Positions 3,074 through 15,584 of a DNA stretch of 15,584 bases are shown here, piece after piece; the first letter of the stretch is position 1; every line of letters starts with the position of its first letter. The notes under the pieces are model-generated. The model ran no database searches, was not told the origin of the DNA, and saw only the letters and a program-made list of their open reading frames with translations. The stretch is taken from assembly GCA_018816605.1 (NCBI GenBank), contig JAHIVS010000186.1, positions 1-15,584 of the forward strand, written 5' to 3'. The translations under genes and the position numbers were made by a program. The DNA comes from Pseudomonadota bacterium. Lineage in GTDB: Bacteria > Desulfobacterota > Desulfobacteria > Desulfobacterales > Desulfobacteraceae.

Positions 3074-4719
3074 ACTTCAATAACAATGGGAACGATCAAG
3101 GGTTTGCGGTTAATGGCAAAGGCAAAATATTGTTTGAGTTCCCGGGAAAGTTTTTTGCGAATCAGATCTACCCTGGATTCCAGTCCCGCCTCAACCTCTT
3201 CAACAATCTCAAGGATCACGCACTGGGCATCGTCCACCAAATGGCCCGTGGCAGAATCAAAAACAAATCCCTTGGAAATCAATTCCGGTCCATAGAGCAC
3301 CACCCCTGTTTCTTCGTCAATGATCAGGGTGACCACCACAAGCCCGCCCTCGGAAAGCTCCCGGCGCTCCTTGAGAACACTTCTGCCCACATCCCCGATC
3401 CCTTTTCCGTCCACAAGAATCCTTCCGGTGTGAACCTTTCCTTCAATACGGCCGCTTTCCTGATCAAAAACAATGACGTTACCGTCCTCGGCCACAAGGA
3501 CATTCTCCCTTGCAAGCCCCATTTTCTCTGCCAGTCGGGCATGGATGACCAGATGACGATACTCGCCGTGGATGGGGATAAAATACCTGGGTTTGGTCAG
3601 GTTCAGCATGAGCCTGAGCTCTTCCTGGTGGCCATGGCCCGAGGCATGGATCTGGGCAACCTTTGAATAAACGACTTCTGCTCCCCGCCGATACAGCTTG
3701 TTAATGATATTTCCAATGGCTTTTTCATTGCCCGGGATATGTTTGGAAGAGAGAATGACCGTATCTTTTTTCTTAATATTAATATGCCGGTGAATTCCAG
3801 AGGCCATGCGAACCAATGCGGACATGGGTTCCCCCTGGCTTCCCGTGGTGATGATGATCACTTTGTCATCTGCACAGGAATTGATCTGTTTGATATCCCG
3901 GATCATGCTGGGGGGACATTTGATATACCCAAGGCTTGTGGCAACAGAGACGATCTGTTCCATGCTCCGGCCGTTGAAAATGATTTTGCGGTTGTTGTGG
4001 ATGGCAATGTCAATCACCTGCTGAATCCTGGATACATTGGATGCAAACAAGGCCACAATCACCCTGCCCGGTGCCACTGCAATCAATTTGCCAAGATTTC
4101 TGGCCACCTCCTGCTCGGACATGGTATATCCTTCCACCTCGGCATTGGTGGAATCGGACATCAAGGCCAAAACCCCTTCTTCCCCGAATCGGGCAAAGCT
4201 GGAGATATCTGTATTTTTCATCTTATCGGCATTGTGGCTGATGCGAAAATCGCCGGTGTGGACCACCAGGCCTTCCGGAGTTTTAATGGCAAGACCGACG
4301 CCGTCTATGGTGGAATGGCTCACCCGGATAAATTCAATTTCAAAGGGATCTATGGAAAGGGTTTCCCCCGGATTGACCAGGTTCAGATCAATGTGCTTGT
4401 TCAGGTCAAACTCCACCAGCTTGTTTCTGACAATCCCCAGGGTAAATGCAGTGCCGTAAACCGGAAGCCGAATTTCCTTTAACAGATAGGGCAAGGCCCC
4501 GATATGGTCTTCATGGGCATGGGTGAGAATGATCCCCTGAACCTTGTCTCGATTTTCCCGGATATAATCCATGGCCGGAATAACAATATCCACCCCCAGC
4601 ATATAATCTTCCGGAAACATGAGACCGGCGTCAATGATAAACATCACATCGCCGTATTCCACCACCATCATGTTCAGGCCTATCTCACCCAGACCGCCAA
4701 GGGGTATTATTTTAAGCAT
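3070..4719 (-). CDS. rnj: Ribonuclease J (metallo-beta-lactamase/beta-CASP RNase)
   Basis: A 549-residue RNase J, combining endonuclease and 5'-3' exonuclease activity in mRNA decay and rRNA maturation in the cytosol. The zinc-binding signature THAHEDH is at 66-72, followed by HTGDF at 154-158 and the SDSTNAE segment at 189-195. The beta-CASP region includes TGSQGEP (292-298) and HASGHGHQEEL (358-368), then the PIHGEYRHL block (382-390). The RNase J C-terminal domain runs from about 450 to the end. Length and motif order match the family closely. The start at ATG 4719 is preceded by AGGTTGGATCA, a moderate ribosome-binding site. The RNase J-FtsK gene pair is tightly packed, with the TGA of this gene overlapping the ftsK ATG. 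Confidence 0.96.
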   Translation of the reverse strand: MLKIIPLGGLGEIGLNMMVVEYGDVMFIIDAGLMFPEDYMLGVDIVIPAMDYIRENRDKVQGIILTHAHEDHIGALPYLLKEIRLPVYGTAFTLGIVRNKLVEFDLNKHIDLNLVNPGETLSIDPFEIEFIRVSHSTIDGVGLAIKTPEGLVVHTGDFRISHNADKMKNTDISSFARFGEEGVLALMSDSTNAEVEGYTMSEQEVARNLGKLIAVAPGRVIVALFASNVSRIQQVIDIAIHNNRKIIFNGRSMEQIVSVATSLGYIKCPPSMIRDIKQINSCADDKVIIITTGSQGEPMSALVRMASGIHRHINIKKKDTVILSSKHIPGNEKAIGNIINKLYRRGAEVVYSKVAQIHASGHGHQEELRLMLNLTKPRYFIPIHGEYRHLVIHARLAEKMGLARENVLVAEDGNVIVFDQESGRIEGKVHTGRILVDGKGIGDVGRSVLKERRELSEGGLVVVTLIIDEETGVVLYGPELISKGFVFDSATGHLVDDAQCVILEIVEEVEAGLESRVDLIRKKLSRELKQYFAFAINRKPLIVPIVIEV

Positions 4720-4740
4720 TGATCCAACCTAGATATTTTT

Positions 4741-5073
4741 TTAAATGCAGATGGAAAGCTTTTCCAGGATGGCATCTGTCTGATCGATCAACCAGTCACG
4801 CTGCTCCTTTCCGGCATAGCCCATGCAATCGCATTTGATGTTTTTTTTAATCCTCACAAGAAGCTCACAAGACAATTGGCTTTCTTCCAGCATCAGGGCA
4901 AACACATGGGGTCCGCAGGCTTCATGGGACTTCTGGACAGGGGTGAGTAACTCCCCATCCAGCGCAAGCCAGTATATCCCCTCAATGGCAGCAGGTTCCA
5001 GATACTTGTCAAGGTAATCCTTTAAGCATTGAAAGTCTTTGGGGCTTAGCCCGTCTATTACATATTGTTTCAT
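4741..5073 (-). CDS. Small conserved-type hypothetical protein with a CxC motif
   Basis: A protein of about 110 residues that I cannot assign to a named family. It is acidic, begins MKQYVIDGLSPKDF, and has an IEGIYWLAL segment, a SCELLVRIKKNIKCDCMGYA core and an EQRDWLIDQTDAILEKL C-terminal helix. Four cysteines (CGPH, SCEL and the CDC pair) could bind metal, but nothing proves it. There is no signal peptide or membrane segment. It is cotranscribable with RNase J, ending 21 bases before that start, so a role near RNA processing is possible but only inferred from position. ATG 5073 is preferred because the MKQY start looks natural. ATG 5091 adds six residues, and neither has a clear Shine-Dalgarno. 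Confidence 0.75.
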   Translation of the reverse strand: MKQYVIDGLSPKDFQCLKDYLDKYLEPAAIEGIYWLALDGELLTPVQKSHEACGPHVFALMLEESQLSCELLVRIKKNIKCDCMGYAGKEQRDWLIDQTDAILEKLSICI

Positions 5074-5128
5074 ACCAAATCTAATTAGCATAATTTTGTT
5101 TCAATATGCAACCGGTAATAATCGAACT

Positions 5129-6013
5129 TCAGGCAGGAGCTCCGGGCTTTTTTCTTAAGGCCAGAAAATTGCCCCCCAGAACAAGAAAAAGACCGGCGAT
5201 GGAATAAAAATTCCAGACATATCCTTCGACAAAGGAAGAAATAATCAGGGCCACCACCGGCACCACCATGATGGCATAGGAGGCTTTGTCCGGTCCGATG
5301 GATCCGATGAGGGTCAGATAACACCCAAAGGCGATAATGGACCCGAATACCGATAAAAAGACGAGGGAGCCCACATAGGGAAGGGAAAATGAAAAGGTAA
5401 ACTCCTTGCCCAGGCTAAGGGCAATCAAAATCAGGAAAAGGGTGCCGTATCCCATGCCATAGGCATTGGCCTGAATCACAGGAATGTTTTTTTTTGTGTT
5501 GCGTGCTGAAATTATATTGCCGAAAGAAGCCAGCAGCACACTGGAAAATCCCAGGACAAGGCCCAGTACTCCTTTATCTGCCAGATGGAAAGACTTTATT
5601 TCCGGCATAAAAATCAAAAGGAGTCCCGCAATTCCGGACACGGCACCGATAATTAATTTTTTTTCCAGGGGAGATCCCAGAAAAAGGGTTCCAAGGGCCA
5701 TGTTGAAAAATACAATGGAAGAAAAAAGGACGGCCACAAGACCGGAAGTCAGATAAACTTCCGCCAGATACACCAGCCAGTAGTTGAGGGAAAACAAAAA
5801 CATACCCAAAAGGGCCATGAAAAGATGCTCTTTGACGGTAAACCTCAGGGTCAGCCCCTTGAGTTTGCAAAAAAGAACCAAGAGGACTGCGGCAAGACCG
5901 AACCGATAGATAACCGACACGATGGGCTCCACAGATCCCAGTTGATACTTGATGCCGATCCAGGTGGATCCCCAGACCAGAATAGTAATAATATAGAGGC
6001 TTATATTTTTCAT
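5129..6013 (-). CDS. EamA/DMT-family inner-membrane transporter
   Basis: A polytopic membrane protein of about 294 residues in the drug/metabolite transporter superfamily. Members export amino acids, metabolites or drugs; the substrate here is unknown. About ten hydrophobic helices form two EamA repeats, the first starting with the typical VWGSTWIGIKYQLG and the second beginning around residue 145 (LGLVLGFSSVLLASFGNII). It ends with GGNFLALRKKPGAPA, a basic cytoplasmic tail. ATG 6013 (MKNISLYIITILVWGSTW) is preferred because GGGAAAA lies just upstream and it gives the usual EamA N-terminus. ATG 6025 adds four residues without a ribosome-binding site. The gene is divergent from a MocR-type regulator across about 100 bases, an arrangement that suggests the regulator controls it. 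Confidence 0.9.
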   Translation of the reverse strand: MKNISLYIITILVWGSTWIGIKYQLGSVEPIVSVIYRFGLAAVLLVLFCKLKGLTLRFTVKEHLFMALLGMFLFSLNYWLVYLAEVYLTSGLVAVLFSSIVFFNMALGTLFLGSPLEKKLIIGAVSGIAGLLLIFMPEIKSFHLADKGVLGLVLGFSSVLLASFGNIISARNTKKNIPVIQANAYGMGYGTLFLILIALSLGKEFTFSFSLPYVGSLVFLSVFGSIIAFGCYLTLIGSIGPDKASYAIMVVPVVALIISSFVEGYVWNFYSIAGLFLVLGGNFLALRKKPGAPA

Positions 6014-6025
6014 TTGTTTTCCCAT

Positions 6026-6126
6026 ACTAAATCATTGATTTTGTGCCGAGTATATATTAAACAGAAATGAAAAACAGTTACAGAAGATAATCTTATCAAC
6101 CATAACAGATCGCGGATCAAATAAAA
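6026..6126. promoter_or_regulatory. Divergent promoter region between EamA transporter and MocR regulator
   Basis: AT-rich spacer between two divergent starts, expected to hold both promoters and the regulator's operator. On the minus strand TATACT at 6054-6049 is a good -10 candidate for the transporter, though no good -35 sits at the right distance. The inverted repeat GATAA-tc-TTATC at 6086-6097 and the flanking GTTACAG (6077-6083) and ATAACAG (6102-6108) half-sites could be where the MocR protein binds. The promoter placement is inferred, not demonstrated. Confidence 0.45.
6086..6097. repeat. Short inverted repeat, candidate regulator operator
   Basis: GATAATCTTATC has perfect 5-base arms (GATAA/TTATC) around a 2-base centre, 29 bases upstream of the MocR start. 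Short AT-rich palindromes occur by chance, so the operator role rests mainly on position between divergent regulator and transporter genes. Confidence 0.3.
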
Positions 6127-7575
6127 TTGGCTGTTAACTTTCGATATGTGGCCCTTGCCGATGAAATCCAGGAAAACATCATGGCGGGACTTTTTTCCCC
6201 CGGTGAAAAGCTTCCTTCCCTGAGAAAACTCCACAACAACCTGGGACTAAGCGTTTCCACCATCCACCAGGCCTATATAGAACTTGAAAAACGCGGCCGG
6301 GTCGAGGCCAGGGAAAAATCGGGCTTCTATGTCAAGGCCCTGGACGCAAGCCCCCTTGGCAAACCCGCCAGGGGAAAAGAAGATGCCAGGCCCAGCCGGG
6401 TGAAGGTAAACGCCCTGGCTGAAACCATTCTTTCAGATCTTCAGTCCGATGAGATCCTCCAGCTGGGGGCCGCCATGCCCTCAAAGGAACTCATGCCCAT
6501 CAAGCAGCTGTCCCGGATTTTAAAATCCCTCCCCTCAACCGAACTTGGGGAATGCATGGGCAATTATGATGTCTGCGCCGGCTTTTCAGGACTTCGGGAA
6601 GCCATCGCCAAGCGGATGCTGGGATATGCCTGTATGATTTGTGCAAGCGATGTGGTCACCACCAATGGGTGCCTGGAAGCGGTCAGCCTGTGCCTGAGGG
6701 CTGTTGCCAGCCCCGGTGATACCATTCTGGTGGAATCCCCTGTATTCCATTGTTTTTTGCAGCTCATAGAAGACTTGAATATGTATGTTGTGGAGCTACC
6801 CGGCTGCCCGGAAACCGGCATTGATCCGGCTGCCTTTGAAACGGCGGTATCTTCCAAACAGATAAAAGCCTGCCTTTTGAACCCCAATTTTCAGAACCCT
6901 CTGGGGTCGGTTATTTCCACAGAAAATAAACGGACCATCCTCAATATTGCCAATTCCCACGATTTGCCCATCATTGAAGACGATATCTACGGAGATCTTT
7001 ATTTTGGGGCGAAAAGGCCCACCACCTTTAAAAGCATGGATACCCGGGGGCTTGTCCTGTATTGTTCTTCTTTCTCAAAAACATTGGCACCGGGCCTGAG
7101 AACCGGATGGACCCTTCCGGGTCGCTTTAAACGCCAGGTAATCCGCATGAAACTGAACTCCCTGCTTTCGGCGCCCAATATCAATCACCGAATTGTGGCC
7201 CGGTTTATCGACACCGGGGCCTATGACCGCCATTTGAGAAAACTGAGAAACCAGATCAAAAACCAGGCCTCGGCCATTGCCATTGCCGTTGCAAACCATT
7301 TCCCCGCAGACACCCAGATTACCTTTCCCAGGGGAGGGCTGTTTATCTGGATTGTTTTAAATAAAAAAATTGATACCATGGTCATTTATCAGAAAGCCTA
7401 CGGGCAGAACATCTCTATCCTGCCCGGTGTCATCTGCTCTTCATCGGACCGGTACCTGCATTGCCTGAGAATCAACATCGGCATCAAATGGAGCCCACGA
7501 CTGGAAAAGGGTATCCACCTGCTGGGACAACTTGTGAAAGAAGAATACAAAAACAACGACCTGGCATTCACATAA
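6127..7575 (+). CDS. MocR-type transcriptional regulator (GntR wHTH fused to aminotransferase-like domain)
   Basis: A 482-residue fusion. Residues 5-70 are a GntR winged helix-turn-helix (ALADEIQENI, GEKLPSLRKL, LSVSTIHQAYIELEKRG). Residues about 105-470 form a fold-type I, class I aminotransferase domain. PLP-site residues are visible: QNPLG (256-260), the aspartate and tyrosine of EDDIYGD (284-290), the Schiff-base lysine K318 in SSFSKTLAPGLRTGW, and a late arginine in HCLRINIG that would bind a carboxylate. Known MocR proteins sense PLP or an amino acid and usually regulate a neighbouring divergent gene, here the EamA transporter. The start is TTG 6127: an in-frame stop lies at 6103-6105, and the first ATG (6181) would remove part of the DNA-binding domain. 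It converges on the rhodanese-DsbD gene with a 95-base gap. Confidence 0.93.
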   Translation: MAVNFRYVALADEIQENIMAGLFSPGEKLPSLRKLHNNLGLSVSTIHQAYIELEKRGRVEAREKSGFYVKALDASPLGKPARGKEDARPSRVKVNALAETILSDLQSDEILQLGAAMPSKELMPIKQLSRILKSLPSTELGECMGNYDVCAGFSGLREAIAKRMLGYACMICASDVVTTNGCLEAVSLCLRAVASPGDTILVESPVFHCFLQLIEDLNMYVVELPGCPETGIDPAAFETAVSSKQIKACLLNPNFQNPLGSVISTENKRTILNIANSHDLPIIEDDIYGDLYFGAKRPTTFKSMDTRGLVLYCSSFSKTLAPGLRTGWTLPGRFKRQVIRMKLNSLLSAPNINHRIVARFIDTGAYDRHLRKLRNQIKNQASAIAIAVANHFPADTQITFPRGGLFIWIVLNKKIDTMVIYQKAYGQNISILPGVICSSSDRYLHCLRINIGIKWSPRLEKGIHLLGQLVKEEYKNNDLAFT

Positions 7576-7670
7576 CAAACCGATGCGGCAATTCCAAAGG
7601 ACAGGTCCAGCTCAGAATATGTGCCGGGACAATTGTCTCCATGGGGTTTAAAAAACCGTTGATACCCGTG

Positions 7671-9422
7671 TTATCTGTTTGCCTTGTTTAATCTTTCCAG
7701 GAAAGCTTCCGGGGGTTCGAAGTCTACCAAGCGCAGCGCTTTGATTTCATGACCGGTCCTGTCCAGAAAAATAAGTGTTGGAACGCCTTTGATCTGATAT
7801 TCCATGAGCAGTTTTTCATGGATTGGATTGCCCTGGCGGGTCAGGTCCACCTTGATCAGAATAAAATTATTGGCTGTCTGTCCCACCACTTCGGCATCAC
7901 GAAACGTAATATCATCAAGCGCTCGGCAGGGGCTGCACCATTGTGCGGAAAAGTCTAGGATCACAGGTTTATCCATCTTCTTTGCCTGGACCAGCAGTTT
8001 TTCATCATAGGGACTAAAATTGGCCCCAGAGCCCTGGTTGATAAAAGTTCCCAAAAGAAGGGTCATAAACACGAAAGCGGACATGGCCGCTGTCACTTTA
8101 ATCCACTCAAAGGCCTTAAAAGCAGCTTTTGTTTTATCGATCCAGCCCAGGTGAAGCCCGGCAAACAGAGCCACGCCTGCCATAAAAAAAACCCCGATGG
8201 TTTTGGAAAAAATCGGTTGGACAAAATAAACAGCCATGCCCACCAATACCCAGCCCATGAGTTTTCTGACCCAAAGCATCCATTCTCCCGACCGGGGGAG
8301 TCGCCTGATACGGCCGGAAAAAAAGGCCAGGAAAAAAATGGGCAGACCCAATCCCAAGCTTAGTGTAAAAAAAATAACAAATCCCAGCCAGGGACTTCCC
8401 ATGCCGGCTACCCAGGCAAGCAAGCCCAGGACAAACGGACCGATGCAGGGGGCAGCAACAATTCCCATCATCAGCCCCATGAACAATGAACCCCAATATC
8501 CGGCATGTGATTTTGTTGCAGCCTGCATTAGTTTATACGGAACCCGTAATTCCCACAACCCGAACAGGCTGAGCGAAAGAAAAATCAAAAGAAAGGCTAT
8601 CAGTATCAGCACCAGGGGATGCTGCAGTAATGCCCCCATCAGCCCGCCTGTCAGTGCTGCAAACACACCGAGCATTGAATTTGTAACGGCAAGCCCGCCC
8701 ACATAGCAGATGCTGTGGACAATTGTTTTCCCTTTACCTTCCCGTCCCCCAAAAAAGGATATGGTGATGGGGATGAGCGGATATACGCACGGTGTCAAGT
8801 TCAGGGCCATGCCGCCGGCAAAAACACCCAGAAGCGTCCAGACCATTGCCCAGCCGTATAATGGGCCGTAGGCATACTCCTTGGCACCGTCTACCCTTCC
8901 GGCGGCCGGATTCGATTCAGCGGATCCAGCCAAAATCGTTTTTACCGGATATCCTCTGGCCTGCCATTCAGGATATCCCGACGGATCACGGAAAACATTT
9001 GTGTAGCCAAGTTTTACAGCCACACGGGCTGCCGAGTCACTTCGAACTCATGCCAGGCCCGCTCAGTAAAAAACAATGGTTCGGTCCTTATCCGGGCCAA
9101 GGGCCTTTTCAAGGGAGGCTTTTTTCTGCCACCGTGAAAACCAGGTCGGCTCCATGGAGAAATTGATGGCCTGCTGGATATGTCCGGTGCGAAATTCCCA
9201 TTCCTGGCGGGTATCAACAATCAGAAACGTGTCAGGACCTTCCTGGTATTTTTGCCAGAGCGCATCTGTTTGTATAAGACGATACCCGCCGTCCCTTGAC
9301 TCGGCCACCACATCTCCCCAGGATGTCTCCTTTGGGGCAACCGCCCGGTTGGTAAACCACAGGACACCGATTGTCAGACAGATTCCAATCAGCACAATGC
9401 GATTTTTTTTAATTGTTTTCAA
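7671..9422 (-). CDS. Probable double-selenocysteine rhodanese-DsbD-thioredoxin fusion protein (two in-frame UGA codons)
   Basis: I read this as one 583-residue gene with UGA at codons 120 and 125; a standard caller would split it at 9063 and 9023. In order: basic N-terminus and signal anchor (IVLIGICLTIGVLWF), then an extracytoplasmic rhodanese domain (about 45-160) whose active segment reads VFY-U-AGLA-U-VRSDSAARVAV, continuing in frame as KLGYTNVFRDPSGYPEWQARG. Next is a CcdA/DsbD membrane core with the two conserved cysteines in NLTPCVYP (C212) and AAPCIGP (C326). Last is a thioredoxin domain with WCSPC (C496, C499) and GVPTLIF. Homologous rhodanese domains carry YCxGxxCxRS, so both UGA codons replace cysteines. 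The rhodanese takes the place of the usual DsbD alpha domain. The likely role is passing electrons from cytosolic thioredoxin to a periplasmic selenol/sulfur site. The TTG start at 9422 has AAGGAGG 4 bases upstream. Selenocysteine is inferred; domains and frame continuity are seen directly. Confidence 0.85.
9016..9032 (-). promoter_or_regulatory. Candidate bacterial SECIS hairpin for the second UGA (9050-9048)
   Basis: GCAGCC-CGUGU-GGCUGU forms six base pairs (five Watson-Crick, one G-U) around a five-base loop CGUGU, again with G at loop position 2. The loop begins 21 bases after the second UGA. It shares bases with the lower stem of the first hairpin, so the two structures would form in turn as the ribosome advances. 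Confidence 0.6.
9033..9050 (-). promoter_or_regulatory. Candidate bacterial SECIS hairpin for the first UGA (9065-9063)
   Basis: The RNA UGAGUU-CGAAGU-GACUCG folds into a six-base-pair stem (two G-U pairs) with a six-base loop CGAAGU. The loop starts 18 bases after the first UGA and has G at its second position. Both fit the usual bacterial SECIS rules (loop roughly 16-37 bases downstream, G in the first two loop bases). An additional lower stem CGGGC/GCCCG (9061-9057 with 9029-9025) could extend it. The second UGA codon is itself the start of the upper stem. Confidence 0.65.
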
Positions 9423-9426
9423 TCAA

Positions 9427-9433
9427 CCTCCTT
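9427..9433 (-). promoter_or_regulatory. Strong ribosome-binding site deciding the TTG start at 9422
   Basis: AAGGAGG on the minus strand, 4 bases before TTG 9422. It is the best Shine-Dalgarno match in the window and justifies a non-AUG start for the rhodanese-DsbD gene, giving a normal basic N-terminus and signal anchor. The spacing is a little short. Confidence 0.7.
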
Positions 9434-9488
9434 AAACAACTCTTTTTTATCTTGAAATCATCTGTTCAGGTTCCTGGGGATTTTTTAC

Positions 9489-9526
9489 GATTCTTCTATT
9501 CAATTAATCTCTTGAATAGAAGAATC
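9489..9526. repeat. Perfect 15-base inverted repeat with 8-base loop
   Basis: Arms GATTCTTCTATTCAA (9489-9503) and TTGAATAGAAGAATC (9512-9526) are exact complements around TTAATCTC. After one mismatch, four more pairs follow on each side. No U-tract follows on either strand, so it does not look like an intrinsic terminator. It lies 67 bases upstream of the TTG start of the rhodanese-DsbD gene and could be an operator, a leader hairpin or a mobile-element scar. Confidence 0.8.
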
Positions 9527-9638
9527 ATAAATATCAGACCCCTTAAAGTCAATAATTTTCTGGTTTGGTACCTTTCTCTTTGATCAGAGAAAACTTATAC
9601 ACACCCATGTATTTTATTAGTTTTGACAAACTTTTCCC

Positions 9639-9720
9639 CTTGTCCCTTGCAAAACAGTTTTTGGATGTTTATCCTTTGTTTAGGGACAAGTCCCTTGGGA
9701 TTGGAAAAACCAGGCAAGGG
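9639..9720 (+). repeat. Self-complementary leader cluster upstream of the small ORF
   Basis: CTTGTCCC (9639-9646) is complementary to GGGACAAG (9683-9690), and the overlapping CCCTTGC (9644-9650) is complementary to GCAAGGG (9714-9720). GGGAC-aa-GTCCC (9683-9694) can also fold on itself. The pairings are mutually exclusive, which would be typical of a switching leader RNA, but no known riboswitch is recognised. The function is unknown. Confidence 0.35.
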
Positions 9721-9764
9721 CGTTTTTGGAGGGAATACGTTTACAATTATAAAGGAGCCAGCAT

Positions 9765-10004
9765 ATGAAAGACCGAGCAATAAGACGGCACCAGACAGCA
9801 AAAGTTAAACACAAAATTGAAAAGACGTATAATAGTTGCATTGAAGAATTATCCAGCGAGGAACGGCAGAATGTGGAAGGGAAGGTTGAAAAATTGAAAA
9901 AAGTGTGTGCCTCCCCCTATTCAGAGGAACATGACCGGAGCCTGGGGCATAAAACCCTACAGGAACGAAAACATGATATTACCATGCGAGAACAGATAAA
10001 ATAA
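9765..10004 (+). CDS. Small basic hypothetical protein
   Basis: A 79-residue, highly charged, lysine/arginine-rich protein without signal peptide or membrane segment. It begins MKDRAIRRHQTAKVKHKIEK, a start reminiscent of short basic proteins beginning 'M(K/R)xRAIRRH' seen in various bacteria, and is predicted largely helical (EELSSEERQNVEGKVEKLKK). AAAGGAG at 9751-9757 lies 7 bases before the ATG, which strongly supports real translation. It is the only plus-strand gene in its neighbourhood and sits between repeat elements in an otherwise gene-poor stretch, so it may be accessory DNA. Nucleic-acid binding is plausible from its charge but not shown. I do not recognise a family. Confidence 0.65.
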   Translation: MKDRAIRRHQTAKVKHKIEKTYNSCIEELSSEERQNVEGKVEKLKKVCASPYSEEHDRSLGHKTLQERKHDITMREQIK

Positions 10005-10026
10005 ACAGATGCCATTATTTTACATG

Positions 10027-10100
10027 GGGTCAGGCTTTCTTTATTGCAGTTTGTTCCGTCTAAATTATTGATAAAAATCACAATAAAAAAAGCCTGACCC
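10027..10100. mobile_element. REP/MITE-like long inverted repeat
   Basis: Arms of 20 bases (10027-10046 and 10081-10100) pair at 19 of 20 positions around a 34-base centre. The ends read GGGTCAGGC and GCCTGACCC. Such GGGTCAGG-ended palindromes resemble the REP sequences mobilised by IS200-like (RAYT) transposases, but no transposase lies here. It sits between the convergent small ORF and the DUF554 gene and could also act as a transcript-end hairpin. No U-tract follows either arm. Confidence 0.5.
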
Positions 10101-10177
10101 TTGCCAGAAAAGCCCAAGTCCCAAATGTGAGGTATCTCTCTTAAAAAAAAACCGGAGCCAAAGGGATCAACGCATCG

Positions 10178-10861
10178 TCAGAACGCCAACCGGATCAAGT
10201 AATAGACCAGGGGAACAAAAACAGCCGGCAGCATATTGCCCACCTTGATCTTTTTTTCCCGGAGCATGTTCAGTCCCAGGGCCAGGATCAAGAGTCCGCC
10301 GGTGCCGGACATCTGGCTGACCACGGCAGGTATGAGCAAGGGCTTTAAAACCCCTGCCATCAATGTGATCCCCCCCTGATAAACCAGCACAGGCACAGCG
10401 GAAAACATGACACCGATTCCCAGGGAAGTGGTCAGGATGATCCCGACGATTCCATCGATACAGGCCTTGGCAAACAGGGTGTCATGATTGCCGGTAAGCC
10501 CGCTTTCAAGGGAGCCCACAATGGCCATGGACCCCACACAATACATTAGGGAAGCCGTGACAAAGCCTGCGGAAAAGCCCGTGGAATTTTTCGAAAATTT
10601 TGTTTCCAGAAAATTGCCCACCCTTTCCAGATAGGATTCAATGCCGATAAATTCTCCCACAACCGAGCCGATTGCCAGGCTGATGATGATAACAAGCAGA
10701 TCGTCGCATCCCAGGGCACTTTTGATCCCCACCAGAATAACGGCAAGCCCCATGGCCTGCATCACGATATGATTGTATCTTTCGGGAACACCGTTTTTAA
10801 ACAGCATTCCGGCAAGGCTTCCGCAGATAATGGCCACACAATTGACAAAGGTTCCCAGCAC
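10178..10861 (-). CDS. DUF554 family membrane protein
   Basis: A 227-residue polytopic membrane protein. The N-terminus MLGTFVNCVAIICGSLAGMLF, the GIKSALGCDD and LAIGSVVGEFIGIE segments and the GFVTASLMYCVGSMAIVGSLESGL block match the DUF554 (YqgA/YdfK-like) family, whose biochemical role is not established and is sometimes suggested to be transport. About six to seven hydrophobic helices are visible. The start is GTG 10861, with CGGAG about 10 bases upstream. It lies 35 bases after purQ on the same strand, so it may be the last gene of the rseP-purL-purQ transcript, but nothing links it functionally to purines. The length is normal for the family. Confidence 0.9.
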   Translation of the reverse strand: MLGTFVNCVAIICGSLAGMLFKNGVPERYNHIVMQAMGLAVILVGIKSALGCDDLLVIIISLAIGSVVGEFIGIESYLERVGNFLETKFSKNSTGFSAGFVTASLMYCVGSMAIVGSLESGLTGNHDTLFAKACIDGIVGIILTTSLGIGVMFSAVPVLVYQGGITLMAGVLKPLLIPAVVSQMSGTGGLLILALGLNMLREKKIKVGNMLPAVFVPLVYYLIRLAF

Positions 10862-10896
10862 GTTGATTCAGCTCCGCTTGCTTATAGAGATTAAAA

Positions 10897-11730
10897 TTAG
10901 CGTTGGTTTAGAAACGTATCCCGGATATAGTCAACCCCGTTTTTAAACAAACGGATACCGATGGTCATACCGGTATCCAGTGTCTCACCCCGACGCTTTC
11001 CCTGCTCTTTTTGACGGGTCCAGTCCGGATGGTTTGTAAAATGGTTATAGCCTTCGGGGTGGGGCATGAGTCCGAATATCCTGCCGGTGGGATCACAGAT
11101 ACCGGCGATATCCGACATGGACCCATTGGGATTTAAGGGGAAGGTGCCCTTTGCAGGCAATCCTTTGCTGTCGGCATATCGGAACACCACCTGGTTGTCG
11201 GCGATCAATTGTGCAATGACCTTGGGATCGGCAATGACCTTTCCCTCTCCGTGGCGGACAGGATAATCTGCCAGTTCAATCCCCTTGGAAAAGACACAGG
11301 GGCTGTCGGCATTGCCTGCCAGGTGAACCCACTGGTCCCTGAAATTTCCGCAGTCATTGAAGGTAATGGAAACGGACCGCCGGGTATAATCGGCCTCAAG
11401 TCCCGGCAGAAGGCCCAGGTTAACCAGGGCCTGAAATCCGTTGCAGATACCGATGACCAGTTTCCCCTCCTTCACAAAGGAGAGCAGGTCCTGCCCAATA
11501 TGGTTTTTGAGTTTGAGCGCCTGGATAACCCCTGCCCCATGGTCGTCCCCCCAGGAAAATCCGCCCCCAAGGGCAAGGATATGATAGTCTGAAAGCTTTT
11601 CCTTGCCTGCAATCAACGAATTGATGTGAACCCTGTGGGACCGGGCACCGGCCAGTTCAAAGGCCAGGGCTGTCTCAGTATCGCAATTCAAACCAAAACC
11701 GGTTAAAATCAATGCTTTAACCTTTTTCAT
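10897..11730 (-). CDS. purQ: Phosphoribosylformylglycinamidine synthase, glutaminase subunit PurQ
   Basis: A 277-residue class I glutamine amidotransferase that supplies ammonia to PurL for converting FGAR to FGAM in purine biosynthesis (cytosol). The nucleophile C96 sits in GICNGFQALVNLG (94-106), and the catalytic His-Glu pair is H224/E226 in MPHPEGYNH. The oxyanion region is LALGGGFSWGDD (52-63). It is longer than typical small PurQ proteins (about 220-230 residues), closer to the amidotransferase domain of large PurL enzymes. Its ATG overlaps the TGA of purL as ATGA, so the two subunits are probably coupled. GMTIGIRLFKNGVDYI forms the C-terminal tail. Confidence 0.95.
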   Translation of the reverse strand: MKKVKALILTGFGLNCDTETALAFELAGARSHRVHINSLIAGKEKLSDYHILALGGGFSWGDDHGAGVIQALKLKNHIGQDLLSFVKEGKLVIGICNGFQALVNLGLLPGLEADYTRRSVSITFNDCGNFRDQWVHLAGNADSPCVFSKGIELADYPVRHGEGKVIADPKVIAQLIADNQVVFRYADSKGLPAKGTFPLNPNGSMSDIAGICDPTGRIFGLMPHPEGYNHFTNHPDWTRQKEQGKRRGETLDTGMTIGIRLFKNGVDYIRDTFLNQR

Positions 11731-14700
11731 ATATGGTCTCCAAAAGTCTTGTTAAAGGCCTTATCAAGGGCATCACAAGACAGATTAACAATGGCTTTTT
11801 TCTCCCTGCCGTCAATTTTCAAACAGGTATGAGCGTCTGTGACGCTCCCGACACAAGTGACAGGAAGTCCCTTACATAATTTTTCAAACACGCCTTTATT
11901 GTCCGGCGAAATGGTTAGAATAACCCGCCCGGCAGATTCAGAAAACAGGAGGATATCATCGGACAGGCCGCCCTTGCCCCTGAGCGCATTGCTCATGGGC
12001 AGACAGGACAGGTCTATCTCCATGCCAAGCTGTCCGGCCATGGCCATAAGGCACAGATGAACCCCGATCCCCCCCCTTGCCACGGCATGGCTGGAGGCGA
12101 TCAATTCCATATCAATGGCTTTTTCCAGGACTTTATAGAGTATTTTACAGGCATCAAAATCCACTTCCGGCACATTTTTTCCCGTTTTATCAAACAGATC
12201 ATAATATTCCGATGCGCCCAGCTCATTTTTGGTTGTGCCCATGACATAGACAAGATCGCCTGCCACCTTGGGGTCCATGGTCACACATTTTGATATATCG
12301 TTCAGGACGGAAGTTGCCGAAAACTGAACCGTTGGAAGAGCAGAGACCTTTACCCTTTCCCCGAACTGTCCTTCCAGATGTCCGTCCACATACATGCTGT
12401 CTTTGCCCGAAAGCAAGGGAATCTTATAGGCCATGCAGGTATCTTTTAAGGCCCGGCATGCCCTGACCAGCTGGGCTGCCTTGAATTTGCCGTCCGGATT
12501 TTTCTCTGGGTCAAACCCGATATTGGGCCAGCAGAAATTATCCACCCCCCCGATATGCTCAAAAGACCCGCCCACACAGATCAGCCGCCGAACCGCCTCA
12601 TCAATGGTGCAGGCCATCATGTGATAGGCATCAATTCTAGAGTACCATGGCAGCAGGCTCTGGGAAAAGGCAAGCCCCTTCTGGCTTGTGAGCACAGGAC
12701 GCGTCACCGAGGCGTCCGACGGGATATTGCGGTTTACGCCCACCAGGGGTTTGACCACGGAACCGCCCTGGACCTCATGGTCATACTGCCGTAAAATCCA
12801 TTCTTTGGAGCAAATATTGGGCCGGGCCATCATCTCAAGCAGCAATCGGTTAAAATCTGCGGGTGTGCTGATCACAGGTTCCGTAAGCCCCCTTGTTTCC
12901 GGCGGCAGCCAGACAGCATCAAATTCCCAGGAGGGAAATCCTTTTTCAAGCAGGTCCATATCCACATAGGCACAGGTTTCCTCCTTGTATTTAATATGCA
13001 GCTTGCCCGTATCGGTATATTTTCCGATCACCGTGCTTTCCACCGCATGCTCCCGGGACAATTCCATGAACCGATCCAGATTTTCCGGCTTTACGGCAAT
13101 GGTCATGCGCTCCTGGGATTCGGAAATCCAGATCTCCCACATGTCCAGACCCTCATATTTTAAGGGGACACGGTCCAGCCAGACCTCGCATCCGTTGGAC
13201 AGCATGGCGGATTCGCCCACAGACGAAGAAAGACCTCCCCCGCCGTTGTCGGTAATAAAAGTGGTAAGCCCCTCGTCCCTGCAGACCAGCAGAAAATCAT
13301 GCATTTTTTTCTGGGTATAGGGGTCACCGATCTGAACGTGGCCGGCCGGTGTATGCTCGGAATAACTTTCCGAAGAGGCCGTGACCCCGTGGATACCGTC
13401 CTTGCCCACCCGCCCGCCGCTCATGATAATCAATTCGCCGGGAGCGGTGGTTTTTTTATGGCTGGGTTTACCGGCAATAAGGGCCGGCATGATGCCCAAA
13501 GCGGTTACAAAAACAAGACTCTTGCCCATGTATCCCGGATCAAACAGGGTCTGGCCGAAGGTGGTGGGCACGCCGCTCTTATTGCCGCCGTCCTTAACCC
13601 CTTCGATGACGCCGTCCAGAAGGCGCCTGGGATGCAACGGCGGATTCAAGGGACCGTCATACCCCACCTCCCCCACACAAAATCCGAAACTGCCCATGAA
13701 CAATTTGGCACCAAGGCCGGTTCCCATGGGATCCCGGTATACCCCGACGATGCCCGTGATGGCACCCCCATAGGCTTCCATGTTGGAAGGGGAGTTATGG
13801 GTTTCGCCGGTGATCACATAATTATTGTCATCGTCAAATTTTCCCACACCTGCATTGTCCCACAAAACAGAGACCACCCAGTCTTTTTCTTCCTTAAGGG
13901 CCAGTGTTGGGCGCTGGATATAGGTTTTAAACAAAGAGTTTTCAACGACACTTTCATTGGTGGCAGCATCCGTGTATTGGAAAATACCATTAAAGGTGTT
14001 GTGATTGCAATGGTCGCTTCTGGCCTGGGAAATATATTCCAGTTCCACATCCGTGGGTACGGACAACCCCTTTTCCCGCCTTTCCCTAAGAACCTTCGGG
14101 TCCAGAAAATAGGCCCGTATAACCGGTATATCCCGGGGATTCAGGGCCAGATTCCTCTGGTCGCTGATCTGGGAAAGCATCTCATCGGAATCGATACAGA
14201 TGGTGCTGCAACAGGGGGTGTGGTCCAGAATTACCTTGGCCGGTTTGACATCGGCACCCGTTTTTTTATTCCACTCCTTGGCGGAAAAAATCTTAAACTG
14301 CTGAATGATGGGATTGGACAGCAACTCGACTGCCAACGTTTCAATTTTTTCCCGGGTCAGGGTTTCCCCCTTCAGACAATACCGTCTGGAGGTATAGATT
14401 CCTTCATCCTTCCCAAAGGTCTTGCCCAGAACATCTGAGATGGCTTCCATTGCCGTAGCGCCTGCATTGTCCTTGACGCCGGGCCGGAATCCGATCCAGA
14501 CACACCAGTCAAAGACGATATCCAATGGATGTAAACTTGAAATCTGGGTCACCGGATTTGTCAGAATCTCATCTTTTACCCGATCAAGCTCTGCCCCATC
14601 CAGGTCAGCGTCAATGGTTACGATATGGACACACCGTGCCGCCGTGATCTTGATTCCGAAATAGGAATCGGCCTTTTTCCTTAAAGAAGATGCTTCCGCA

Positions 14701-14744
14701 TCCGAAAGCTCTTGTTTAAGAGCAATTTCAATACATGAAACCAT
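11727..14744 (-). CDS. purL: Phosphoribosylformylglycinamidine synthase PurL, long form with PurS-like N-terminus
   Basis: ATP-dependent FGAM synthase subunit of de novo purine synthesis, about 1005 residues. Numbering from ATG 14783, residues 15-85 (IEIALKQELSDAE to NPVTQISS) and 90-167 (FDWCVWIGFRPGVKDNAG to NPIIQQFKIFS) look like two successive PurS-type repeats. A linker with RSDHCNHNTF (256-264) follows, then the first AIRS-like half with the catalytic GETHNSPS (326-333), and a second half ending in the glycine-rich SHAVARGGIGVHL. A separate PurS gene is therefore not needed here. ATG 14744 is preferred: GGGTGGA precedes it and the PurS-like domain begins at once. ATG 14783 would overlap rseP by 8 bases and has no ribosome-binding site. 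PurQ is encoded directly downstream. Confidence 0.95.
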   Translation of the reverse strand: MVSCIEIALKQELSDAEASSLRKKADSYFGIKITAARCVHIVTIDADLDGAELDRVKDEILTNPVTQISSLHPLDIVFDWCVWIGFRPGVKDNAGATAMEAISDVLGKTFGKDEGIYTSRRYCLKGETLTREKIETLAVELLSNPIIQQFKIFSAKEWNKKTGADVKPAKVILDHTPCCSTICIDSDEMLSQISDQRNLALNPRDIPVIRAYFLDPKVLRERREKGLSVPTDVELEYISQARSDHCNHNTFNGIFQYTDAATNESVVENSLFKTYIQRPTLALKEEKDWVVSVLWDNAGVGKFDDDNNYVITGETHNSPSNMEAYGGAITGIVGVYRDPMGTGLGAKLFMGSFGFCVGEVGYDGPLNPPLHPRRLLDGVIEGVKDGGNKSGVPTTFGQTLFDPGYMGKSLVFVTALGIMPALIAGKPSHKKTTAPGELIIMSGGRVGKDGIHGVTASSESYSEHTPAGHVQIGDPYTQKKMHDFLLVCRDEGLTTFITDNGGGGLSSSVGESAMLSNGCEVWLDRVPLKYEGLDMWEIWISESQERMTIAVKPENLDRFMELSREHAVESTVIGKYTDTGKLHIKYKEETCAYVDMDLLEKGFPSWEFDAVWLPPETRGLTEPVISTPADFNRLLLEMMARPNICSKEWILRQYDHEVQGGSVVKPLVGVNRNIPSDASVTRPVLTSQKGLAFSQSLLPWYSRIDAYHMMACTIDEAVRRLICVGGSFEHIGGVDNFCWPNIGFDPEKNPDGKFKAAQLVRACRALKDTCMAYKIPLLSGKDSMYVDGHLEGQFGERVKVSALPTVQFSATSVLNDISKCVTMDPKVAGDLVYVMGTTKNELGASEYYDLFDKTGKNVPEVDFDACKILYKVLEKAIDMELIASSHAVARGGIGVHLCLMAMAGQLGMEIDLSCLPMSNALRGKGGLSDDILLFSESAGRVILTISPDNKGVFEKLCKGLPVTCVGSVTDAHTCLKIDGREKKAIVNLSCDALDKAFNKTFGDHI

Positions 14745-14775
14745 AGTATCCACCCGATTTGATCTAACTGATTTT

Positions 14776-15584
14776 TCAGCCATTGATCATTCTGACAATG
14801 TCGTTATAAAAAACAAAAACCATTAATGCCACCAGCAGTGCTGCCCCGAACTGAATCAGTTTTTCCCGCAGCTTATCACCCACCGCTTTACCCGTAATTG
14901 CCTCAATCCCGAAAAACAAAAGATGTCCGCCGTCTAAAACCGGAATGGGAAACAAATTGATAATACCCAGGTTGACGGAAAGCAGTGCAATAAACCAGAC
15001 AAAATTAACGGCTCCGGCCTTGGCCTGTTCCCCTGCCATCTGGGCGATCATCAAAGGCCCCCCCAAATTGTCTGCGGAAACGCTGCCGGTCACCATCTTC
15101 ACCACAGACAGAATGGTCAGCTTCACAAGGCCATAGGTATCGGAAATGGAACGGCCAATGGCCTGGAGCGGGTTCAAACTTCTATGGAAGGTCTCACCGG
15201 TTCCCAGAATGCCGATCACATATTTGTCCACATCCTCTCCAAATACATTTTTTGCACTCCGCTTCTCGGGGATGAGGGTGACAGAGGTTATCTGCCCTTC
15301 CCGTTCAATGACAATTTCAAGCTTATCGCCCTTACCGGTGCCGATCACCCGGGAGATATCTTCAAAGGACTCAACGGATTTCTGATCAATGGCCTTGATC
15401 CTGTCCCCGGGTTTAAGTCCCGCACTCTGGGCCGGCGTATTTTCCAGAATCTTTCCGATGACCGGTGCTGCCATGTATATTCCGGAAAACTGATACAGCA
15501 CATAAAAAATAAACAAGGCCAGAAAAAAATTAAAAGCCGGACCGGCTGCCACAATAATACTTTTCTGGGCCAAACTTTTATGGG
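14776..15584 (-). CDS. rseP: Site-2 intramembrane metalloprotease RseP, 3' part
   Basis: At least 269 C-terminal residues of an RseP/RasP-type protease; the gene continues past the right edge, so the HExxH zinc site is not visible. The visible part starts HKSLAQKSIIVAAGPAFNFFLALFI, the standard membrane segment after the active site. One PDZ domain (VIGKILENTPAQSAGLKPGD, about residues 40-105 of the fragment) and the C-terminal LFPIPVLDGGHL motif, whose aspartate binds zinc, follow. The family cleaves membrane-embedded substrates such as anti-sigma factors. There is no internal stop. The coding end lies 31 bases before the preferred purL start, so the two are probably cotranscribed. Confidence 0.95.
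   Translation of the reverse strand, partial: HKSLAQKSIIVAAGPAFNFFLALFIFYVLYQFSGIYMAAPVIGKILENTPAQSAGLKPGDRIKAIDQKSVESFEDISRVIGTGKGDKLEIVIEREGQITSVTLIPEKRSAKNVFGEDVDKYVIGILGTGETFHRSLNPLQAIGRSISDTYGLVKLTILSVVKMVTGSVSADNLGGPLMIAQMAGEQAKAGAVNFVWFIALLSVNLGIINLFPIPVLDGGHLLFFGIEAITGKAVGDKLREKLIQFGAALLVALMVFVFYNDIVRMING

What the first reader, a model, noticed from the sequence alone, without database searches (positions are those of the whole stretch)
7671..9422. Double-selenocysteine rhodanese fused to DsbD: two UGA codons in one active-site segment
Seen directly: the minus-strand frame from TTG 9422 to the TAA at 7671 is interrupted only by UGA at 9065-9063 and 9050-9048. Protein homology runs through both: the rhodanese domain begins before the first UGA and finishes (GYTNVF...PEWQARG) after the second. 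Established: related rhodanese domains have YCxGxxCxRS here, so both UGA codons sit at cysteine positions, giving FYUAGLAUVRS. UGA ends at least four other genes in the window (rseP, purL, rnj, ftsK), so a recoded genetic code is unlikely. Selenoproteins are common in Desulfobacterales. To my knowledge a UxxxxU rhodanese fused to a DsbD core is not a standard described selenoprotein, although Sec-containing rhodaneses have been reported in surveys. Conventional annotation would yield two false genes.
Basis: partly seen in the sequence, partly recalled or inferred. Interest (0 to 1): 0.93.

Follow-up and report, generated by a model that had tools for sequence, protein, structure and literature searches.

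The report
Double-selenocysteine membrane rhodanese (TsoB)
A gene, likely from a relative of the sulfate reducer Desulfobacula, carries two in-frame stop codons (UGA) that are predicted to be read as the rare amino acid selenocysteine; it belongs to a published protein family (TsoB), and its relatives keep two RNA segments right behind the two codons that are predicted to fold into hairpins and likely direct this, one for each codon.

Summary
Minus-strand frame 9422-7671 is open except for UGA at 9065-9063 and 9050-9048. The read-through product matches NCBIfam NF045694, "rhodanese/DsbD fusion-like selenoprotein TsoB", with 939.5 bits (cut-off 805), and a 2026 review lists TsoB as UxxxxU with two Sec (passages). 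The central claim is therefore already in print. Of 126 distinct relatives read as DNA, 125 have TGA/TGA, one TGC/TGT, none a mixture. selA and selD occur in 5 of 5 nearest genomes. What I add is the RNA layout: two adjacent predicted hairpins follow the codons, and the four codons with the strongest synonymous constraint in the gene (ranks 1-4 of 472) lie in them. Hairpin 2 shows synonymous compensatory changes; hairpin 1 holds the second UGA in its stem but does not covary. I infer one SECIS per UGA; one hairpin for both is not excluded. Protein role, inferred: a DsbD-type electron relay ending in a two-selenium rhodanese site. The window's copy lacks tsoA and tsoC motifs beside it.

The parts
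7671..9422 (-). tsoB coding frame, 583 codons before TAA, two of them UGA predicted to be read as Sec
9427..9433 (-). Shine-Dalgarno-like AAGGAGG before start TTG 9422
   Evidence: read from the sequence
9063..9065 (-). UGA 1, residue 120, catalytic-Cys position of the rhodanese domain
   Evidence: Cys in L038, P0025, P0026, P0061, P0098
9048..9050 (-). UGA 2, residue 125, in a two-residue insertion of the rhodanese active loop
   Evidence: insertion seen in the two alignments to solved rhodaneses that were shown
9033..9050 (-). Predicted hairpin 1 (loop 9044-9039, starting 18 nt after UGA 1); its 5' arm is UGA 2 plus GUY
   Evidence: synonymous constraint, no covariation
9016..9032 (-). Predicted hairpin 2 (loop 9026-9022, starting 21 nt after UGA 2 and 36 nt after UGA 1)
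   Evidence: synonymous constraint and compensatory changes
8958..9263 (-). Rhodanese domain, residues 54-155
8211..8843 (-). DsbD transmembrane core, residues 194-404, with invariant C212 and C326
7761..8003 (-). C-terminal thioredoxin domain (residues 474-554) with invariant C496 and C499 (CSPC), closest to DsbD gamma

Best explanation
This is a tsoB gene whose two in-frame UGA codons are predicted to be decoded as selenocysteine, most likely each under the direction of its own downstream RNA hairpin, giving a membrane protein that would pass electrons to a two-selenium rhodanese site. Shown: the frame, the family, the TGA/TGA conservation, the two constrained RNA segments, and the domains with their invariant cysteines. 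Inferred: hairpin 1 (which holds UGA 2 in its stem) serves UGA 1; the ribosome then opens it and hairpin 2 serves UGA 2. Inferred: the rhodanese domain takes the place of the N-terminal domain of DsbD; electrons run from cytoplasmic thioredoxin through C212/C326 and C496/C499 to the Sec120-Sec125 pair, which takes sulfane sulfur (or a related oxidised sulfur substrate) on Sec120, is resolved by Sec125 as a diselenide with release of sulfide, and is reduced again by the thioredoxin domain.
For: NF045694 939.5 bits, cut-off 805; UxxxxU with 2 Sec in the review table. TGA/TGA in 125 of 126 distinct loci, TGC/TGT in 1, mixed in 0. dN/dS window vs nearest relative 0.26 before UGA 1, 0.32 after UGA 2, 0.31 overall. 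The nearest relative ends tsoB itself in TGA. selA 5 of 5, selD 5 of 5 nearest genomes; selB over cut-off 18 of 20, tRNA-Sec 17 of 20 (15 of these at 69 bits or more). RNA: codon ranks 1-4 of 472 are 130, 126, 134, 132; hairpin 2 pair 36-48 is GC 83, AU 32, GU 4, CG 2, UA 1, UG 1, unpaired 2, and pair 39-45 is CG 115, UA 10, of 125, all at third codon positions; on the tree columns 39 and 45 change 5 times, always together. The loop of hairpin 2 has G then G/U in 125 of 125. Protein: C120, C125, C212, C326, C496, C499 are invariant in 38 of 38 aligned rows, Sec read as C; the C-terminal domain is closest to DsbD gamma, the N-terminal part to rhodaneses.
Against: Hairpin 1 shows no covariation, falls short of the -7.5 kcal/mol bSECIS threshold when folded alone (median -6.3, window -4.1), lacks the G[G|U] loop pattern, and the RNAalifold consensus draws another 5' structure in its place. 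Two of the five shuffle measures for the pair of hairpins were not above chance: pairs with a change on both sides (152 of 500 shuffles as high) and further pair types (500 of 500). Hairpin 2 lies 36 nt from UGA 1, still inside the 16-37 nt range quoted in PMC13188914, so it could serve both codons. On supported branches there are only 3 independent contrasts for each covarying position, too few for p < 0.05. In the window's own RNA a competing 9-bp hairpin takes part of hairpin 2 in the longest fold, and hairpin 2 is absent from the fold of columns 28-69 in 45 of 125. selB is not over cut-off in 2 of 20 genomes (in G003 it lies there in two pieces) and tRNA-Sec not in 3 of 20; G007 has neither, yet keeps TGA/TGA in tsoB. 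The tRNA-Sec cut-off is also passed by 5 of 14 control genomes, so weak hits prove little. Substrate, topology and electron route are not tested; the model's confidence is moderate (pLDDT 75.9, pTM 0.50).
Confidence: 0.7

Rival explanations
1. Same double-Sec TsoB, but one hairpin (hairpin 2) serves both UGA codons; the conserved stretch called hairpin 1 is needed for something else, such as the context of UGA 2 or the spacing.
For: Hairpin 2 alone covaries and fits the G[G|U] loop pattern; it lies 36 nt from UGA 1, inside the quoted 16-37 nt; RNAalifold keeps hairpin 2 and not hairpin 1.
Against: Codons 130, 126, 129 and 128 rank 1, 2, 8 and 15 of 472 in synonymous constraint, with UCN 117/117, GUY 120/120, GAC 121/124 and AGY 125/125 against 66.5, 64.1, 51.5 and 53.5 expected; UCN, GUY and GAC are what the stem of hairpin 1 asks for.
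Confidence: 0.25
2. The two UGA codons are real stops: a pseudogene, a sequencing error, or two separate genes.
For: Gene finding gives two ORFs, and 115 of the 120 listed database relatives are the 3' piece alone.
Against: TGA/TGA in 125 of 126 distinct loci, purifying selection on both sides, no frameshift in the frame.
Confidence: 0.02
3. UGA is a sense codon (for example Trp) throughout this genome.
For: Two in-frame UGAs in an otherwise open frame.
Against: UGA ends six window genes and ends tsoB in the nearest relative; Cys, not Trp, stands there in four full-length homologues and in L038.
Confidence: 0.01
4. The protein is an electron donor to other periplasmic partners (for example the TsoA and TsoC selenoproteins) and not a sulfur enzyme in its own right.
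For: TsoA motif lies upstream in 61 of 118 and TsoC motif downstream in 61 of 92 loci with enough flank; TsoC was found in 21 of 23 genomes; DsbD itself is a donor to other proteins (recalled).
Against: 28 of 85 loci with both flanks have neither motif beside them, and the window has none; TsoA was not found in 9 of 20 genomes.
Confidence: 0.3

Closest known systems
TsoB (NCBIfam NF045694), of the Tso 'three selenoprotein operon'
   Same: Over the family cut-off along nearly the full profile; UxxxxU; rhodanese, DsbD core, thioredoxin in that order.
   Different: The window's copy has no TsoA, TsoC or TsoX motif in the window; in its nearest relative G001 TsoA was not found and TsoC lies on another contig.
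DsbD (thiol:disulfide interchange protein)
   Same: Transmembrane core with two invariant cysteines and a gamma-like thioredoxin domain.
   Different: Scores 247.9 bits, below the DsbD model's cut-off of 330; a rhodanese domain stands at the N-terminal side.
Single-Sec rhodanese selenoproteins (NF041203 CxU and the other forms in PMC13188914)
   Same: Sec in a rhodanese domain.
   Different: One Sec each in the review table; NF041203 scores 40.1 here against a cut-off of 115.
UxxU redox proteins (bacterial Prx-like and putative mercuric reductase; eukaryotic SelL, name recalled, its paper seen only as a title in a reference list)
   Same: Two close Sec residues in one redox motif.
   Different: Other folds and spacing; eukaryotic SECIS lies in the 3' UTR.
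ArsR-rhodanese-like protein beside tsoC in G001 (L170 3019-3696, minus; name from motif, not searched)
   Same: Same enlarged loop, YCRGPYC.
   Different: Cys/Cys, N-terminal part of another kind, no membrane part evident.

Membership tests
TsoB (NF045694) | Full-length match over the curated cut-off | tested here: met
   939.5 bits vs 805, profile 5-571 of 572
TsoB (NF045694) | UxxxxU with two in-frame UGA | tested here: met
Tso operon | tsoA and tsoC beside tsoB | tested here: not met
   No TsoA, TsoC or TsoX motif in any of six frames of the window; the rest of the window's genome is not held
Bacterial selenoprotein | Sec machinery in the same genome | not testable with these tools
   Own genome not held; relatives:
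Bacterial selenoprotein | Cys at the Sec positions in homologues | tested here: met
   L038 TGC/TGT; P0025, P0026, P0061, P0098 Cys/Cys, P0053 Gly/Arg
bSECIS, hairpin 2 | Loop 3-9 nt, stem 4-16 bp, G in first two loop positions, 16-37 nt after UGA, MFE <= -7.5 (PMC13188914 Fig. 2 legend) | tested here: met
   5-nt loop, 5-6 bp, G 125/125, 21 nt after UGA 2, median -9.5 (weakest -3.3), window -8.0
bSECIS, hairpin 1 | Same criteria | tested here: inconclusive
   6-nt loop, 5-6 bp, G at loop position 2 in 125/125, 18 nt after UGA 1, but alone median -6.3, window -4.1; -18.3 for the 47 nt from UGA 1, there with a lower stem that I rejected
DsbD | Match to the DsbD model over its cut-off | tested here: not met
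   247.9 vs 330; it is predicted to work like DsbD, it is not filed as DsbD
Rhodanese | Pfam Rhodanese over gathering score | tested here: met
   56.3 vs 22.2 bits
Rhodanese | Sulfurtransferase activity | not testable with these tools
   needs an assay

The most novel reading that the evidence does not exclude
TsoB mRNAs carry a relay of two interleaved bacterial SECIS hairpins: the second selenocysteine codon is built into the stem of the first SECIS, so the ribosome must unfold the first element to expose the second UGA, which the next hairpin then serves. This would be a compact solution for placing two selenocysteines five residues apart, and it would explain why both-Sec and both-Cys forms are found and no mixed form among 126 loci.
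Probability: 0.5. Interest if true: 0.65.

Novelty: new member of a known kind. Interest (0 to 1): 0.42.

Why it matters
A bacterial UGA needs its recoding hairpin inside the coding sequence just behind it, so two Sec codons 15 nt apart pose a packing problem. TsoB offers a natural case with 125 sequences in which one can test whether one SECIS can serve two codons or two SECIS elements are interleaved. It also shows that 115 of the 120 listed database relatives stand there as truncated proteins, many of them named DsbD or thioredoxin family.

Tried and rejected
Long lower stem enclosing hairpin 1 (columns 4-9 with 37-42): the structure is 86% paired, without covariation and no better than shuffles; rejected. 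Recoded genetic code and pseudogene: rejected. TsoA's own hairpin was compared (loop AGGUG about 20 nt after its UGA): similar spacing, no shared loop sequence firm enough to use. The one Cys/Cys DNA copy (L038) keeps most hairpin pairs, so it does not discriminate. Codon columns meant as controls were not all neutral: V136 GTA 62/121 against 12.6 expected and G122 GGC 64/125 against 49.3 were enriched too, L123 CTG (47/123 against 50.0) was not; rows are related, so these simulations overstate significance. Controls for the tree contrasts: unpaired columns 36/42, 36/27, 48/27, 48/60 and 36/15 went the same way in 1.3 of 3, 0.5 of 3, 0.4 of 4, 0.6 of 3 and 1.3 of 2 contrasts, against 2.9 of 3 and 3.0 of 3 for the paired columns (the 36/60 control was cut from view). 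Paper searches that would have shown two close UGA codons or tandem SECIS in bacteria: searches gave no paper, 78 and 82 gave listings; the one listed paper with 'adjacent UGA' (PMC10778597, passages) speaks of a single codon. Haft and Tolstoy 2025, the source of TsoB, is not held, so I cannot say that the hairpin layout is unpublished. Rfam has no match in the window at gathering thresholds. My working note says the synteny with L001 runs over 15 kb; one search shows window 4171-15420, and the report uses that.

Rows dropped: 159 motif hits were reduced to 126 distinct loci. Of the 49 loci, L046 (matched only from residue 126, at its contig's start), L048 (39% identity, residues 165-579 only) and L049 (partial copy) gave no motif. 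A1 holds 46 of the 47 rows then known, L038 left out. A2 holds 34 of those 47 plus 4 of the 5 full-length database proteins, P0053 left out.

Full report
The sequence. The minus-strand frame from TTG 9422 to TAA 7671 is interrupted only by UGA at 9065-9063 and 9050-9048. The read-through product has 583 residues: a predicted N-terminal helix (2-24), Rhodanese (54-155), DsbD_TM (194-404) and a thioredoxin domain at the C-terminus. The UGA codons are residues 120 and 125.

What it is. NCBIfam NF045694, 'rhodanese/DsbD fusion-like selenoprotein TsoB', matches over profile positions 5-571 of 572 (939.5 bits, cut-off 805, E 4.7e-283). The review PMC13188914 (passages read) lists it as rhodanese form 5, UxxxxU, two Sec, citing Haft and Tolstoy 2025, and describes Tso as 'three selenoprotein operon'. 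The family is therefore known; I could not read the source paper.

Relatives. One scan of GTDB contigs gave 49 loci. Three larger samples had a match over the cut-off in 22 of 395, 56 of 389 and 27 of 257 genomes (the samples overlap). Of the 110 matches over the cut-off in these three calls, 109 have exactly two TGA and one has none. A search that did not fix the residues at the two positions found 126 distinct loci: 125 TGA/TGA, 1 TGC/TGT, 0 mixed. Among the 120 listed of 7745 protein-database hits, five keep the rhodanese domain: four Cys/Cys and one (P0053) with Gly and Arg. The nearest relative, L001 (Desulfobacula sp. S2_67), is syntenic over window 4171-15420, apart from a gap at 7557-7648, at 92-95% nucleotide identity and keeps both TGA; dN/dS is 0.26 before UGA 1, 0.32 after UGA 2 and 0.31 overall. 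Eight neighbouring proteins are 90.5-100% identical there (six of the eight 95-98%), TsoB 86%.

Machinery. The window's genome is not held. In 20 genomes of relatives selB is over its cut-off in 18 (G003 has it in two pieces, G007 none) and tRNA-Sec over its gathering score in 17, of which 15 have 69 bits or more; of 14 control genomes 2 and 5 pass these cut-offs. In the five nearest genomes selA is found in 5 of 5 and selD in 5 of 5, each selD itself with one TGA; selB and tRNA-Sec were searched in two of these five (G001, G019) and found in both.

RNA. I numbered columns from UGA 1. Hairpin 1 is columns 16-33 (loop 22-27), hairpin 2 columns 34-50 (loop 40-44). Across 46 sequences and 472 codon columns, the four codons with the greatest excess of synonymous conservation are 130, 126, 134 and 132, and the top 11-codon window is 125-135; Tyr119 just before UGA 1 (TAC 44 of 45) ranks 7. 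In 125 sequences hairpin 2 keeps pairing through synonymous changes (36-48: GC 83, AU 32, GU 4, CG 2, UA 1, UG 1, unpaired 2; 39-45: CG 115, UA 10). For both hairpins in 46 sequences, cells with a change on both sides number 16 against 4.0 +/- 1.6 in shuffles, 0 of 500 as high; the covariation score and the percentage paired also exceed every shuffle; the number of pairs with such a change (152 of 500) and of further pair types (500 of 500) do not. On a 125-row tree columns 39 and 45 change five times, always together; columns 36 and 48 change 11 and 13 times, the pair 15 times; on supported branches there are only three independent contrasts for each, going the same way in 2.9 and 3.0 of 3, which cannot reach significance. 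Hairpin 1 is paired in 97% of cells but does not covary. Its case rests on codon choice: GUY 120/120, AGY 125/125, GAC 121/124, UCN 117/117 and UCG 97/117, against 64.1, 53.5, 51.5, 66.5 and 14.4 expected from each gene's own usage (rows are related, and two of three control columns were enriched too). Folding of columns 13-54 gives both hairpins in 101 of 125. Against this: RNAalifold prefers another 5' structure, hairpin 1 alone is weak, and the window's own RNA has a competing hairpin.

How it likely works. Each UGA has a hairpin whose loop starts 18 nt (UGA 1, hairpin 1) or 21 nt (UGA 2, hairpin 2) downstream, within the 16-37 nt quoted in PMC13188914. UGA 2 is the base of hairpin 1's stem. 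I infer that hairpin 1 recruits SelB for UGA 1, is then opened by the ribosome, and hairpin 2 serves UGA 2. The alternative, hairpin 2 for both (36 nt from UGA 1), is not excluded. In the protein, C120, C125, C212, C326, C496 and C499 (Sec as C) are invariant in 38 of 38 rows. The C-terminal domain is closest to DsbD gamma; rhodaneses match residues 48-162 by sequence and appear among the fold matches (model pLDDT 75.9, pTM 0.50). In the two alignments to solved rhodaneses that were shown, the active loop here is two residues longer. I infer a DsbD-type relay ending in a Sec-Sec pair that reduces sulfane sulfur; nothing here tests it.

Neighbourhood. TsoA motif upstream in 61 of 118, TsoC motif downstream in 61 of 92 loci with enough flank; of 85 with both flanks, 42 have both, 12 TsoC only, 3 TsoA only, 28 neither (motif search, so degenerate copies are missed: L009 has a TsoC with TAA at the Sec position). 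By family model TsoA occurs in 11 of 20 and TsoC in 21 of 23 genomes. The window has neither motif; in its nearest relative TsoC lies on another contig beside an ArsR-rhodanese-like gene.

Verdict. The observation and the selenoprotein reading hold. The family is known. The open and testable point is the interleaved pair of hairpins.

Noticed in passing
L170 3019-3696 (minus), G001: tsoC of the nearest relative sits on another contig next to an ArsR-rhodanese-like gene with a Cys/Cys loop YCRGPYC, the same enlarged loop as TsoB.
   Followed up: partly
L038 / L168 and L018 / L057 (genome G012): One genome carries both a Sec/Sec and a Cys/Cys TsoB; the Cys/Cys copy still keeps most of the hairpin pairing.
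   Followed up: partly
L049 6001-6852 (G019 contig C103): A partial second tsoB copy that lacks the segment with the two UGA codons, on the same contig as an intact Sec/Sec copy.
   Followed up: partly
L009 6310 and following (G007): The TsoC next to this TsoB has TAA where L011's TsoC has the Sec TGA; the same genome has another TsoC with TGA elsewhere, and no selB or tRNA-Sec over cut-off.
   Followed up: partly
P0053: A full-length TsoB relative with FYGHGLARVRS: neither Sec nor Cys at the two positions.
   Followed up: no
window 7671-9422 vs L001: TsoB is 86% identical to its syntenic counterpart while six of eight neighbouring proteins are 95-98%: it differs more than most of its surroundings.
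   Followed up: partly
window 9001-9025 (minus): A 9-bp hairpin in the window's RNA would compete with hairpin 2; in L001 the 3' arm is changed.
   Followed up: no
window 9423-10177: About 750 bp upstream of tsoB without an assigned gene; a 79-aa ORF on the plus strand (9765-10004) has no Pfam match at E 0.1.
   Followed up: partly
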